From NCBI GenBank assembly GCA_009663185.1, contig VJZX01000009.1, forward strand, positions 1 to 64,000: 64,000 bases of DNA. Reading direction: 5' to 3'. Below the pieces are notes generated by a model that was not told the DNA's origin, searched no databases, and saw only the letters and a list, made by a program, of their open reading frames with translations. Both the position numbers and the translations under genes were made by a program. This stretch comes from Isoptericola halalbus (GTDB taxonomy: Bacteria > Actinomycetota > Actinomycetes > Actinomycetales > Cellulomonadaceae). Of the stretch, positions 14,372-36,681 are shown in pieces. The stretch's first letter is position 1. Each line of letters opens with the position of its first letter.

Positions 14372-14429
14372 CGAGGTAGAACCGCGCTCGCCGAGGTAGA
14401 AGCGCGCTTGCCGCGGTTCTACCTCGGCG
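14372..14429. repeat. small CGAGGTAGAA repeat cluster with 13-bp inverted repeat
   Basis: Two forward copies of CGAGGTAGAA at 14372-14381 and 14392-14401 are exactly 20 bp apart. A reverse copy lies at 14417-14426. CGCCGAGGTAGAA (14389-14401) and its exact complement (14417-14429) form a 13-bp perfect stem with a 15-nt loop. It lies 8 bp after the preceding stop codon, so it could act as a terminator, but the core is shared with the larger array at 34707-34907. Confidence 0.8.
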
Positions 14430-33452: not shown

Positions 33453-34697
33453 GTGACCTCCACCCTCGAGACCGTCAGCCCGACGACGCCGCAGCCCGCC
33501 CGCGAGGCCGGTGCGGCGTCGTCGGGCACACGCGTGCTGCCGGCGCTGCAGATCGGCCCGATCACGGTGGACACGCCCGTGGTGCTCGCGCCCATGGCGG
33601 GCGTGACCAACCGCGCGTTCCGTACGCTGTGCCGCCAGGCGGGCGCGTCTCAGGGCTTCGACCCGGGGCTGTACGTGGCCGAGATGGTCACGAGCCGCGC
33701 GCTCGTCGAGCGCAACGTCGAGTCGCTGAGGATCGTGACGTTCGGCGCGGACGAGACGCCGCGCTCGGCCCAGGTCTACGGTGTCGACCCGGCGACCGTG
33801 GGCGCCGCGGTGAAGATCATCGCGGGCGAGGACCGCGCGGACCACGTGGACCTCAACTTCGGCTGCCCCGTACCCAAGGTGACGCGCAAGGGCGGCGGCT
33901 CCGCGCTGCCCTGGAAGCGTCAGCTGTTCACCGACATCGTGCGCGCGGCGGTGGTCGCCGCCGAGCCGTACGGGGTGCCCGTCACGGTCAAGATGCGCAA
34001 GGGCATCGACGACGACCACCTCACCTACCTCGAGGCCGGCCGCATCGCCGAGTCGCTCGGCGTCGCGGCGGTCGCACTGCACGCGCGCACCGCCGCCGAC
34101 TACTACTCCGGGACGGCGGACTGGTCCGCGATCGCGAGGCTCAAGGAGGCCGTCCGGTCGATCCCCGTACTGGGCAACGGGGACATCTGGTCCGCCGAGG
34201 ACGCGGTCCGCATGGTCCGCCAGACGGGCGCGGACGGCGTCGTCGTCGGCCGCGGCTGCCAGGGGCGGCCCTGGCTGTTCGCCGACCTCGCCGCCGCGTT
34301 CCACGGCTCGGACCAGAGGGTGCGGCCCGGCTTGCGGGAGGTCGCCGAGACGATCTACCGGCACGGCGAGCTGATGATCGACTACTTCGACGGCGACGAG
34401 GGCAAGGGCATGCGCGACCTGCGCAAGCACATGGCCTGGTACCTCAAGGGGTACGCGGTCGGGGGCGACGCGCGGCGCGCGCTGGCGATGGTCTCGGCCG
34501 TTGCCGAGCTGCGCGAGCTCCTCGACGCCCTCGATGCTTCTCAGCCGTACCCGGGCGAGGACGCCGAGGGGCCGCGCGGCCGGGCCGGCTCGCCCAAGCA
34601 GCCGCACCTGCCCTACGGCTGGCTCGAGTCGCGCGACCTCGACGCCGACTTCGAGGCGAGGCTGCGCGAGGCGGAGCTGAGCGTCAGCGGCGGCTGA
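33453..34697 (+). CDS. tRNA dihydrouridine synthase
   Basis: 414-residue FMN enzyme reducing uridines in tRNA D-loops; DusB-like by length and layout. Visible: VVLAPMAGVTNRAFRTLCRQ at the start of the TIM barrel, NFGCPVPKVTRKGGGSAL with the catalytic Cys, KMRKGIDDDH, ALHARTAADYYSG and GADGVVVGRGCQGRPWLF. GTG 33453 is exactly 6 nt after CACAAT (33441-33446), suggesting a leaderless message. Convergent with the alpha-glucosidase gene across the repeat/terminator region. Confidence 0.94.
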   Translation: MTSTLETVSPTTPQPAREAGAASSGTRVLPALQIGPITVDTPVVLAPMAGVTNRAFRTLCRQAGASQGFDPGLYVAEMVTSRALVERNVESLRIVTFGADETPRSAQVYGVDPATVGAAVKIIAGEDRADHVDLNFGCPVPKVTRKGGGSALPWKRQLFTDIVRAAVVAAEPYGVPVTVKMRKGIDDDHLTYLEAGRIAESLGVAAVALHARTAADYYSGTADWSAIARLKEAVRSIPVLGNGDIWSAEDAVRMVRQTGADGVVVGRGCQGRPWLFADLAAAFHGSDQRVRPGLREVAETIYRHGELMIDYFDGDEGKGMRDLRKHMAWYLKGYAVGGDARRALAMVSAVAELRELLDALDASQPYPGEDAEGPRGRAGSPKQPHLPYGWLESRDLDADFEARLREAELSVSGG

Positions 34698-34706
34698 GAC
34701 CCCCGC

Positions 34707-34907
34707 CGAGGTAGAAGCGGTGGCGCCGAGGTAGAACAGATTTCGGCGAGGTAGAACCCGTGGCGCCGAGGTAGCGGAGAATCCAGCGAGGTAGAAGGCC
34801 CGACGACGGCGGTACTGCCGTCGTCGGGCCTTCGTGCTTCTACCTCGACGAATGTCCTTCTACCTCGCCGAGCGGAGCTCTACCTCGGCGTACGCCGTCC
34901 TGCCTCG
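34707..34907. repeat. 20-bp-period array of CGAGGTAGAA, head-to-head around a terminator
   Basis: Forward cores begin at 34707, 34727, 34747, 34767 (degenerate, CGAGGTAGCG) and 34787, exactly 20 bp apart. Reverse-complement cores TTCTACCTCG begin at 34838, 34858, 34878 (one mismatch) and 34898 (two mismatches), again exactly 20 bp apart. The ten bases between cores vary. The two half-arrays face each other across the perfect hairpin at 34795-34832. The last reverse copies approach the stop of the alpha-glucosidase gene at 34918. The same core and spacing recur at 14372-14426. Confidence 0.9.
34795..34832. terminator. bidirectional terminator between convergent genes
   Basis: A 16-bp perfect stem (AAGGCCCGACGACGGC with its complement) closes a 6-nt loop GGTACT. 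It sits midway between the stops of the dus gene and the alpha-glucosidase gene and at the centre of the repeat array. Confidence 0.85.
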
Positions 34908-34917
34908 GCGCGGTTCG

Positions 34918-36681
34918 TCAGGCGCGCAGCCAGACCGTGGTGTCAGAGGGCACCTCGTCGGCGACCGGGCCCGACGCCACGAGCACCTCGACGCCGGATG
35001 GCAGAGTCACGGGCTCGGTGCCCAGGTTCGCCAGCACCACCACGTCGCGGTTGCGGAACGCGATGACGTCGGGGGAGCCGGCGTGAGCGTCGAGCCACGC
35101 CAGGCCGCCATGACCCAGTCCCTCGGCGCGGCGTGCGGCAAGTGCGGCCCGGTACATCTCGAACGTCGAGCCGGCCACGCCGTACTGCAGGTCCGCCGCG
35201 TATCGCGCGAACGACTCGGGCTGCGGCAGCCAGGTCTTGCCCGTCGGGCCGAAGCCGAAGCCCGCGGCGTCGGCGGACCAGGGGATCGGGACGCGGCAGC
35301 CGTCGCGACCCGCCTCGGCGCCCAGTGTGCGGAAGAAGGCCGGGTCCTGGCGCAGATCGGCCGGCAGCGCGGTGTGCTCGGGCAGTCCGAGCTCCTCGCC
35401 CTGGTAGACGTACGCCGATCCGGGCAGGCCGAGCATGAGCAGCGACGCGGCGCGGGCGCGGCGCAGGCCCAGCTCCTCGTCGGGCTGCGGGTCCGTGGCG
35501 AAGATGCCGTTCGGCCGCCCACCCGCGTCGGTCAGGCCGAGCCGCGACGTGTGCCGGACGACGTCGTGGTTCGACAGCACCCAGGTGGTCGGCGCGCCGA
35601 CCTCGTCGTTCGCACGGTACGACGCGGCGATCACCGAGCGCAGCGCGGCGGCGTCCCAGCCGGTCGTGAGGAACGAGAAGTTGAACGCCTGGTGCATCTC
35701 GCCGGGCCGCACGTAGCGGGCCAGGCGTGACAACGGCTCGACCCACGCCTCGGCGACGAGGCAGCGGTCGCCGTCGTACTCGGCGAGCACGCGGTGCCAG
35801 GCGCGGTAGATCTCGTGCACACCGTCCTGGTCGAACATCGGGCCGTGTCTGCCCGCGCCCGTCGAGCCGTCCTCGGGCGCGCCGGGGTCGACGGCCTCGT
35901 CGTCGGTGGTGCCGTCGACCATGGCGACGCTGCCCTCCCAGTCGGGCAGGCCGTCGGCCTTGACGAGGCCGTGCGCGACGTCGACACGGAAGCCGTCGAC
36001 GCCCTTGTCGAGCCAGAACCGCAGCACGTCCTCGAACTCGGCGCGCACCTCCGGGTGCGTCCAGTCGAGGTCGGGCTGGGACGAGTCGAACAGGTGCAGG
36101 TACCACTGCGGGCCGAGCGGTCCGTCGTCCTCGCGGGGGGCGAGGCGCGTCCACGCCGGGCCGCCGAAGATCGACTGCCAGTTGTTCGGCGCCTCATCGC
36201 CTGCCGGGCCGCGGCCGTCGCGGAAGACGTAGCGGGCACGCTCGGGCGAGCCCGCGGCCGCGGCTAGCGCAACCTGGAACCATGCGTGCTGGTCCGAGGT
36301 GTGGTTGGGCACGAGGTCGACGACGACGCGGATGCCGCGCTCGTGGGCCGCGGCGAGCATCTCGTCGACGTCCGCGAGCGTGCCGAACAGCGGGTCGACG
36401 TCGCGGTAGTCGGCGACGTCGTAGCCCGCGTCCTTCTGCGGCGAGCGGTAGAACGGCGAGAGCCAGACAGCGTCGACGCCGAGCCGGGCGAGGTGGTCGA
36501 GGCGCGCGGTGACGCCCGGGATGTCACCGATGCCGTCGCCGTCGCCGTCGGCGAACGAGCGGGGGTAGACCTGGTAGATCACGGCGTCGCGCCACCACTC
36601 GCGGGCGGCCTCGCTGCCCACGTGGACGACGGCGCCCGCCAAGGTCTCGGTGGAGGGCGCGGTCTGCTGGGTGCTCGTCAC
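34918..36681 (-). CDS. GH13 alpha-glucosidase (oligo-1,6-glucosidase type)
   Basis: 587 residues, no signal peptide, so cytoplasmic. GH13 motifs in order: WWRDAVIYQVYPRSF, VVDLVPNHTSDQHAWF, GFRVDVAHG with the nucleophile Asp, CLVAEAWVEP with the acid/base Glu, and LSNHDVVRHTSR with the third Asp. A DGDGDGIGDIPG calcium/loop motif is near the N-terminus. It hydrolyses alpha-glucosidic linkages of imported malto-/isomalto-oligosaccharides. It starts at GTG 36681; a LacI-type operator CTTGCTGCAAG lies 51 bp upstream. It is transcribed in the same direction as the LacI gene behind it. Confidence 0.92.
   Translation of the reverse strand: MTSTQQTAPSTETLAGAVVHVGSEAAREWWRDAVIYQVYPRSFADGDGDGIGDIPGVTARLDHLARLGVDAVWLSPFYRSPQKDAGYDVADYRDVDPLFGTLADVDEMLAAAHERGIRVVVDLVPNHTSDQHAWFQVALAAAAGSPERARYVFRDGRGPAGDEAPNNWQSIFGGPAWTRLAPREDDGPLGPQWYLHLFDSSQPDLDWTHPEVRAEFEDVLRFWLDKGVDGFRVDVAHGLVKADGLPDWEGSVAMVDGTTDDEAVDPGAPEDGSTGAGRHGPMFDQDGVHEIYRAWHRVLAEYDGDRCLVAEAWVEPLSRLARYVRPGEMHQAFNFSFLTTGWDAAALRSVIAASYRANDEVGAPTTWVLSNHDVVRHTSRLGLTDAGGRPNGIFATDPQPDEELGLRRARAASLLMLGLPGSAYVYQGEELGLPEHTALPADLRQDPAFFRTLGAEAGRDGCRVPIPWSADAAGFGFGPTGKTWLPQPESFARYAADLQYGVAGSTFEMYRAALAARRAEGLGHGGLAWLDAHAGSPDVIAFRNRDVVVLANLGTEPVTLPSGVEVLVASGPVADEVPSDTTVWLRA

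What the first reader, a model, noticed from the sequence alone, without database searches (positions are those of the whole stretch)
34707..34907. Head-to-head array of a 20-bp-period repeat around a terminator
Five forward cores CGAGGTAGAA (34707, 34727, 34747, 34767, 34787) and four reverse cores (34838, 34858, 34878, 34898) each repeat at exactly 20 bp, about two helical turns, with ten variable bases between. Cores decay outward on the reverse side. The arms face a 16-bp perfect hairpin. Exact phasing with variable spacers argues for selection on core spacing, such as cooperative binding of a protein along one face of DNA, rather than simple slippage, which would copy the spacers too. Alternatives are a REP/MITE-like element or a specialised transcription barrier between convergent genes.
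Basis: seen in the sequence. Interest (0 to 1): 0.75.

Follow-up and report, generated by a model that had tools for sequence, protein, structure and literature searches.

The report
Species-dialect repeat arrays at gene ends
At many gene ends this actinobacterium carries evenly spaced copies of a short DNA word facing each other; related species keep such arrays at the same gene ends but spell the end of the word in their own way, as if tracking an unknown protein that reads it.

Summary
The array is real and belongs to a genome-wide family. CGAGGTAGAA occurs 179 times in this genome (reversed control 3), and as a pair at 20-bp period 50 times (control 0). Arms face each other at gene ends: of 56 intergenic runs 27 lie between convergent genes and 3 between divergent ones. 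In relatives the octamer CGAG[G/A]TAG is kept, while the next 2-4 bases (the dialect) and the period (16-22 bp) change by lineage. Positions are conserved: gene ends with arrays here have orthologues with arrays in 14 of 21 (G141) and 9 of 20 (G110) sites, against 6 of 80 and 1 of 85 control gene ends followed by a gap; a sister without detected arrays, G132, has 0 of 17. In this genus spacers stay variable while the dialect is shared, mirrored spacers do not pair, and REP transposases are absent. Best reading: binding arrays for an unidentified, co-evolving sequence-specific factor, most likely a DNA-binding protein forming a two-way barrier where transcription ends. The pattern is shown; factor and function are inferred. 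Seven text searches found no description.

The parts
34707..34796 (+). forward arm: five cores at 20-bp period (34707, 34727, 34747, 34767 degenerate, 34787), 9 nt after the dus stop codon
34794..34833 (.). central GC-rich hairpin, probable intrinsic terminator; hairpin-only borders exist in sisters G072 and G042
34838..34907 (-). reverse arm: four cores at 20-bp period (34838, 34858 exact; 34878 one change; 34898 two changes), 10 nt before the stop of the right-hand gene
33453..34697 (+). left convergent neighbour, dus (tRNA-dihydrouridine synthase)
34918..36681 (-). right convergent neighbour, alpha-glucosidase-like
14372..14426 (.). second array of the family in the window: forward cores at 14372 and 14392, reverse core at 14417, 7 nt after a stop codon, between codirectional genes

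Best explanation
The element is an array of binding sites for an unidentified sequence-specific factor, most likely a DNA-binding protein. The site is the octamer CGAG[G/A]TAG plus a species-specific dialect of 2-4 bases (AA here). Copies are bound side by side on each flank of a gene-end zone, in mirror orientation, so that RNA polymerase arriving from either side first meets sites in the same orientation. The bound array would act as a two-way fail-safe block or insulator where transcription ends, often beside a hairpin terminator. Arrays grow by tandem duplication; spacers then drift while cores are kept by selection; when the factor changes its preference, sites across the genome follow, which gives the dialects. 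Shown: the genome-wide family, gene-end placement, positional conservation, dialects, and (in this genus) variable spacers and no pairing between spacers of the two arms. Inferred: that a factor exists, that it reads DNA rather than RNA, the selection, and the barrier role.
For: Core 93 + 86 copies against 2 + 1 control. Context of 56 intergenic runs: 27 convergent against 46 of 213 background gaps, 3 divergent against 44 of 213. Orthologous gene ends carry arrays at 14 of 21 sites in G141 and 9 of 20 in G110, against 6 of 167 and 1 of 170 of all sampled gene ends, 6 of 80 and 1 of 85 ends followed by a gap (p 5e-8, 5e-7), and 6 of 28 and 0 of 32 convergent ends (p 2e-3, 5e-5). At these shared places the dialect differs by species; in G141 its three bases hold 1.9, 1.7 and 1.6 bits while positions 12-17 hold 0.1-0.4: copying whole units between loci should homogenise spacers too. 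In G000 mirrored spacers pair no more than chance (66 of 150, shuffled 65.4) and 0 of 3 doubly changed core pairs are compensated. Gaps across the centre lie within 1 bp of a multiple of 10 in 15 of 19 arrays (chosen after seeing the data). G132, with no pair found genome-wide, has 0 of 17.
Against: No factor was identified. Periods of 16 and 22 bp do not suit one fixed helical face. Dialect uniformity is weaker in G000 (1.1, 1.2, 0.9 bits) and G110 (1.2, 0.5, 1.4), and in g8 genomes the spacer itself holds a conserved GGT block (G118 up to 2.0 bits, 9 units; G134 1.5, 21 units), so 'variable spacer' does not hold for the whole family. In g8 the halves of the palindromic form match more than chance (27 of 56 against 12.3), as hairpins or copied palindromic subfamilies would. 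Two dialects can occur in one genome (G110). G145 keeps two or more octamers at only 4 of 22 sites. The stop-codon side is automatic for the 27 convergent runs; between codirectional genes only 15 of 26 runs are in sense. No expression or binding data; gene calls are home-made.
Confidence: 0.5

Rival explanations
1. RNA-level element: the cores are read as CGAGGUAGNNN repeats in the 3' untranslated RNA and bound by a protein that sets the 3' end or mRNA stability.
For: Cores often follow stop codons closely: for the 42 runs with a gene 3' end upstream the distance is -8 to 60 nt, and in 8 of the 42 the core's own TAG is the stop codon. Between codirectional genes sense runs outnumber antisense ones, 15 to 11.
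Against: 27 of those 42 are convergent, where the sense side is automatic. Two-sided arrays also occur between codirectional genes, where one arm is antisense (for example window 14372-14426). The gap across the centre is stepped in tens of bp (15 of 19), which RNA binding does not predict.
Confidence: 0.2
2. Selfish or passive extragenic repeat (REP/MITE-like) that spreads and is tolerated at gene ends; dialects are successive waves of amplification.
For: High copy number, sporadic amplification between species, mostly extragenic location, tandem growth, relics of a second dialect in G110.
Against: No Y1 (RAYT) transposase in 14 genomes, while 5 of 14 control genomes ring. The same gene ends are occupied in different dialects, which new insertions would have to repeat, unless a few ends are hot spots. 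No match in viral contigs or plasmids, each searched with this genome's dialect only.
Confidence: 0.17
3. Ordinary intrinsic terminators: the cores are only stem sequence of long hairpins.
For: Innermost facing cores fold into hairpins in most of the 24 rows; g8 palindromes keep matching halves.
Against: Outer spacers do not pair (66 of 150 against 65.4 by chance) and core changes are not compensated (11 one-sided, 3 two-sided and unmatched). Stem pairing alone explains neither the shared octamer nor fixed steps. G072 and G042 have hairpin-like borders without cores.
Confidence: 0.06
4. DNA-uptake tag like the dialects of Neisseriaceae: copies accumulate because tagged DNA is taken up and recombined.
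For: Species-wide dialects of a short word, inverted pairs suggestive of terminators, a stop codon inside the word: all described for DUS (PMC3630211, passages seen). In nearly every family genome CGAGGTAGAR exceeds its reversed control, also where no arrays were found (G132 26/32 against 7/10), which I cannot explain.
Against: That excess is no larger in array-rich G141 (30/30 against 7/7, whose arrays use another dialect) than in G132. Tandem arrays at a fixed period are not in the DUS passages that I saw. Competence genes were not tested.
Confidence: 0.05

Closest known systems
GTAG-tagged repetitive extragenic palindromes and BIMEs (PMC3733652: abstract, outline and a term search; PMC2817692: listing only)
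   Same: High-copy, extragenic, mainly downstream of genes and between convergent or unidirectional ORFs, units often close in opposite orientation; the octamer contains GTAG
   Different: The single unit is not a hairpin in G000 or G110; no RAYT in 14 genomes; tandem arrays at a fixed period; dialects at conserved sites. The main text of PMC3733652 has no occurrence of Actinobacteria, Cellulomonas, Isoptericola, Xylanimonas, Sanguibacter or GAGGTAG
DNA uptake sequence dialects of Neisseriaceae (PMC3630211, passages)
   Same: Short word with a constant part and a species-specific part, conserved within a species, often in inverted pairs
   Different: Here tandem arrays at a fixed period at gene ends; no receptor or uptake role known
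Protein-bound terminator boxes (TTF-I Sal boxes, Reb1), Tus-Ter, iterons and ParR-type centromere arrays (all recalled, from no call)
   Same: Tandem oriented sites, or sites facing a process to be stopped
   Different: As recalled, those sit at one or a few loci; this family lies at many gene ends, and its dialect and period differ between species; its binder is unknown

Membership tests
REP/GTAG repeats | unit is a 20-40 bp palindrome with an unpaired GTAG foot | tested here: not met
   20-nt units read from GTAG fold more weakly than shuffled in G000 (77 units, -1.64 against -2.42) and G110 (20 units, -2.01 against -3.08), slightly more strongly in G141 (50 units, -4.42 against -3.79)
REP/GTAG repeats | RAYT transposase (Y1_Tnp, PF01797) in the genome | tested here: not met
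   0 of 14 genomes (7 rich in the CGAGGTAGAR core and 7 others); 5 of 14 control genomes ring
REP/GTAG repeats | extragenic, downstream of ORFs | tested here: met
   56 of 73 runs intergenic, 3 of the 56 between divergent genes
DNA uptake sequence | short word with species dialects | tested here: met
DNA uptake sequence | excess spread over the genome including coding regions | tested here: inconclusive
   CGAGGTAGAR exceeds its reversed control in nearly all 150 family genomes, with or without arrays; coding and intergenic copies were not separated genome-wide
DNA uptake sequence | uptake receptor and competence | not tested
   no search for such genes was made
intrinsic terminator | hairpin at the gene end | tested here: met
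   innermost facing cores and centre fold; spacers of the outer arms do not pair; U-tracts were not scored
Rfam RNA families | match to a curated family | tested here: not met
   one chance-level hit, 17.8 bits against a cut-off of 62, in window 34600-35000
protein-binding site array | a cognate binding protein | not testable with these tools

The most novel reading that the evidence does not exclude
A previously undescribed, family-wide system in which one re-specifying DNA-binding protein occupies arrays at dozens of gene ends and serves as a general two-way transcription barrier or chromosome insulator; each species runs its own dialect of the same code, and some species (perhaps G132) have lost the whole system.
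Probability: 0.4. Interest if true: 0.9.

Novelty: new variant of a known kind. Interest (0 to 1): 0.77.

Why it matters
If right, a group of GC-rich bacteria insulates gene ends with protein arrays besides RNA hairpins, and the recognition word is rewritten in parallel at many sites between sister species. That is a natural experiment on how a regulator and its whole set of sites co-evolve, with close relatives that seem to have lost the system as controls. It also shows that such families must be sought by dialect: an exact-core search found nothing in 15 sister genomes of the genus, while a dialect-tolerant one found dense arrays in seven of them.

Tried and rejected
RAYT/REP mobilisation: no Y1_Tnp in 14 genomes. 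Phage or plasmid carriage: no match in viral contigs (a pattern of this dialect) or plasmids (this array). Known RNA: none. Exact dialect outside the family: of 394 genomes in the class sample only G000 matched; other dialects were not sought there, and Luteimicrobium L036 has a related-looking CGAAGTAGTAC / CGAGGTATACC hairpin. Literature: two searches for the core string gave 31 and 28 papers, of which 20 each were listed and none looked relevant by title (not read); five topic searches gave 0, 1, 7 (6 listed), 0 and 0 papers, none relevant by listing. Subscription journals are mostly missing from that library. A Rho loading site (the antisense strand is YC-rich) was set aside by reasoning only: it would not need a fixed word.

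Rows dropped. L115 (core repeats inside a predicted gene) is included but left out. In one search, 56 of 70 forward pairs of G118, G134 and G098 were used; 14 of the 33 from G098 (four-core and short forms) were left out, and G011, G043 and G087 were not used. The 108 hits became 80 fetched regions: convergent pairs were merged, and G110 L095 and L098, G145 L098 and five G132 hits (L098, L103, L105, L107, L112) were not fetched. Two long regions (L280, L305) were scored whole; they also pass within their first 400 nt. In one search three L113 rows and two L120 rows were dropped by hand. In one search only 9 of the 17 g8 genomes were read, because the script took plus-strand matches on both flanks only.

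Full report
The observation. The array lies where stated, between two convergent genes. Five forward and four reverse cores step by exactly 20 bp on either side of a hairpin; four forward and two reverse cores are exact. In the window the octamer CGAGGTAG occurs 23 times against 1.43 expected. In the genome (G000, 4.1 Mb, 110 contigs) CGAGGTAGAA occurs 93 + 86 times against 2 + 1 for the reversed pattern, and two copies at a 20-bp step 25 + 25 times against 0.

What the family looks like here. I fetched 40 stretches around listed hits and added the window. The places came from a list cut at its first 100 and from the pair list, so this is a part of the family. Neighbouring same-strand cores with at most one change step by 20 bp in 85 and by 21 bp in 11 of 107 pairs closer than 100 bp (L115, a coding repeat at 21 bp, is among them); plus-then-minus steps number 27 against 1 minus-then-plus. 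With home-made gene calls, 73 runs of exact cores were placed and 56 were intergenic: 27 between convergent, 26 between codirectional and 3 between divergent genes, against 46, 123 and 44 of 213 gaps in the same loci (p 1e-4 for convergent, 4e-3 for divergent). The two arms of one array count as two runs and the background loci were chosen for their arrays, so these p values are rough. For 42 of the 56 runs the gene on the upstream side (in core orientation) ends there, at -8 to 60 nt; this is automatic for the 27 convergent runs, and holds for 15 of 26 codirectional ones. In 8 of the 42 (distance -8) the TAG inside the core is the stop codon. The extended core is CGSCGAGGTAGAAS (134 exact cores).

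Spacers. Adjacent spacers resemble each other slightly more than spacers of different arrays (5.05 against 4.38 of 10, 43 pairs, p 0.003). Sister genomes hold arrays with near-identical units (L248, 12 octamers; L251, 9; exact 20-bp steps). So arrays seem to grow by tandem duplication and spacers drift afterwards. Mirrored spacers of the two arms pair no more than chance (15 spacer pairs, 66 of 150 Watson-Crick pairs, shuffled 65.4). Of 39 mirrored core pairs 14 hold a variant: 11 on one side only, and the 3 on both sides are not compensated (small numbers). The gap across the centre is within 1 bp of a multiple of 10 in 15 of 19 arrays, p 1.5e-5, a test chosen after seeing the data.

Relatives. 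An exact search finds this dialect's pair in 14 of 150 family genomes, G000 included, and in none of the other 393 of the class sample. The core CGAGGTAGAR is strongly raised in several g8 genomes, in G011 and in one g7 genome, G087; it also exceeds its reversed control moderately in nearly all others. A dialect-tolerant search (GAGGTAG, 8-15 bases, GAGGTAG) finds at least one match in 102 of 150 genomes, many of them single and some clearly coding, and more than 25 on each strand in seven of the 15 other genomes of the genus. The period differs in the loci read: 20 in G098 and G011, mostly 21 in G118, 20-21 in G134, 19-20 in G043, 16 in G087, 19 in G096 and 20 in most G042 places, 22 in G137. 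In g8 a palindromic dimer exists whose halves agree more than chance (27 of 56 against 12.3), and in the few g8 units measured the spacer holds a conserved GGT block. One g8 site was sought in 17 genomes; the nine that my script could read all show cores there, with different unit numbers and dialects, CGAGGTAGTA in G124 among them.

The same border in sister species. Dus was found in 18 genomes of the genus. Ten keep the glucosidase-like neighbour, judged by eye from its conserved 3'-end sequence: G000, G145, G132, G149, G110, G084, G137, G072, G042, G103. Seven of the ten carry cores: CGAGGTAGAA in G000, CGAGATAGAGAA in G145, CGAGATAGAG in G149, CGAGGTAGTYC in G110, CGAGGTAGTGG in G084, CGAGATAGAGAGG in G137, and a single core in G103. 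G132, G072 and G042 have none. G544, with another neighbour, also has cores there. The dus flank of G094 holds the same 76-base stretch as that of Isoptericola sediminis L012, so the genus is probably Isoptericola or one that includes it; the window's own species is unknown, and the closest named dus is that of Antribacter gilvus at 91%.

Positional conservation, with controls. Fragments of 32 array-bearing gene ends were sought in four sisters, and 80 regions were read. Two or more exact CGAG[G/A]TAG octamers occur at 14 of 21 sites in G141, 9 of 20 in G110, 4 of 22 in G145 and 0 of 17 in G132; at least one at 16, 10, 10 and 2. The control is gene ends in ten 20-kb stretches each of G141 and G110: 6 of 167 and 1 of 170 over all ends; 6 of 80 and 1 of 85 over ends followed by a gap of 50 nt or more (p 5e-8, 5e-7); 6 of 28 and 0 of 32 over convergent ends (p 2e-3, 5e-5). 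The sites are therefore shared by descent, or strong hot spots. G141 writes them as CGAGGTAGCGC: the three bases after the octamer hold 1.9, 1.7 and 1.6 bits and positions 12-17 hold 0.1-0.4 (81 units). G000 (143 units: 1.1, 1.2, 0.9) and G110 (39 units: 1.2, 0.5, 1.4) are less uniform, and G110 also holds CGAGATAGAG arrays. G132 has one site (L326) with a lone octamer beside degenerate ones, perhaps a remnant.

Mechanism. A shared dialect beside variable spacers argues, in this genus, against copying of whole units between loci as its cause and for recognition of a word of about 11 bases by something that changes between species. Lack of pairing between outer spacers argues against a purely structural role. 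The stepped gap across the centre favours DNA over RNA; the varied period argues against one fixed helical face. Location at gene ends, mirror symmetry and rarity at divergent promoters fit a two-way barrier or insulator at transcription ends. The factor is not identified, and the DNA-or-RNA question is open.

Known families. REP/GTAG repeats share the location and the GTAG tetramer, but the single unit is no hairpin in two of three genomes tested and RAYTs are absent. DUS dialects share the dialect behaviour but, in what I saw, not the arrays. I file it under neither.

Noticed in passing
L017, L025, L228, L229 downstream of dus: A different shared inverted repeat at gene ends in two other genera and in G543 and G544, with a common central stretch (CCCGAAGTGGAGCGCC...GGCGCGTGAACGCG or its complement).
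   Followed up: no
L012, L239, L243 downstream of dus: Another shared gene-end hairpin (TTGTGGGCATGAAATYYGC... and its complement) in Isoptericola sediminis, G058 and G094; G058 is rich in arrays elsewhere.
   Followed up: no
G000 C20:60597-61450, C21:33674-34252, C27:21928-22750, C29:31695-33614; G118:C4:189842-190551; G049:C1:671636-672202: Facing arms 0.5-1.9 kb apart, in the G000 cases looked at with one or more predicted genes between them; whether this is a cassette-like arrangement is open.
   Followed up: partly
L115 1994-4495 (G000:C27, about 38.68-38.80 kb): The core repeats at a 21-bp step inside a predicted gene, so it would be translated as a seven-residue repeat.
   Followed up: no
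L325 and L327 (G132): The sister without detected arrays seems to end these genes with TAG (CGCGATAG, GCGCGGTAG), possibly relics of lost cores (by eye).
   Followed up: no
L280, L284 (G110); L303, L315 (G145): Arrays or single cores in a second dialect, as if two coexist or an old one lingers.
   Followed up: no
G098 chromosome, 2.09-3.28 Mb: The 33 facing pairs listed leave a 1.2-Mb gap; whether it is the terminus region was not checked.
   Followed up: no
150 family genomes: CGAGGTAGAR exceeds its reversed control also in genomes without arrays (for example G132 26/32 against 7/10); unexplained, perhaps codon use.
   Followed up: no
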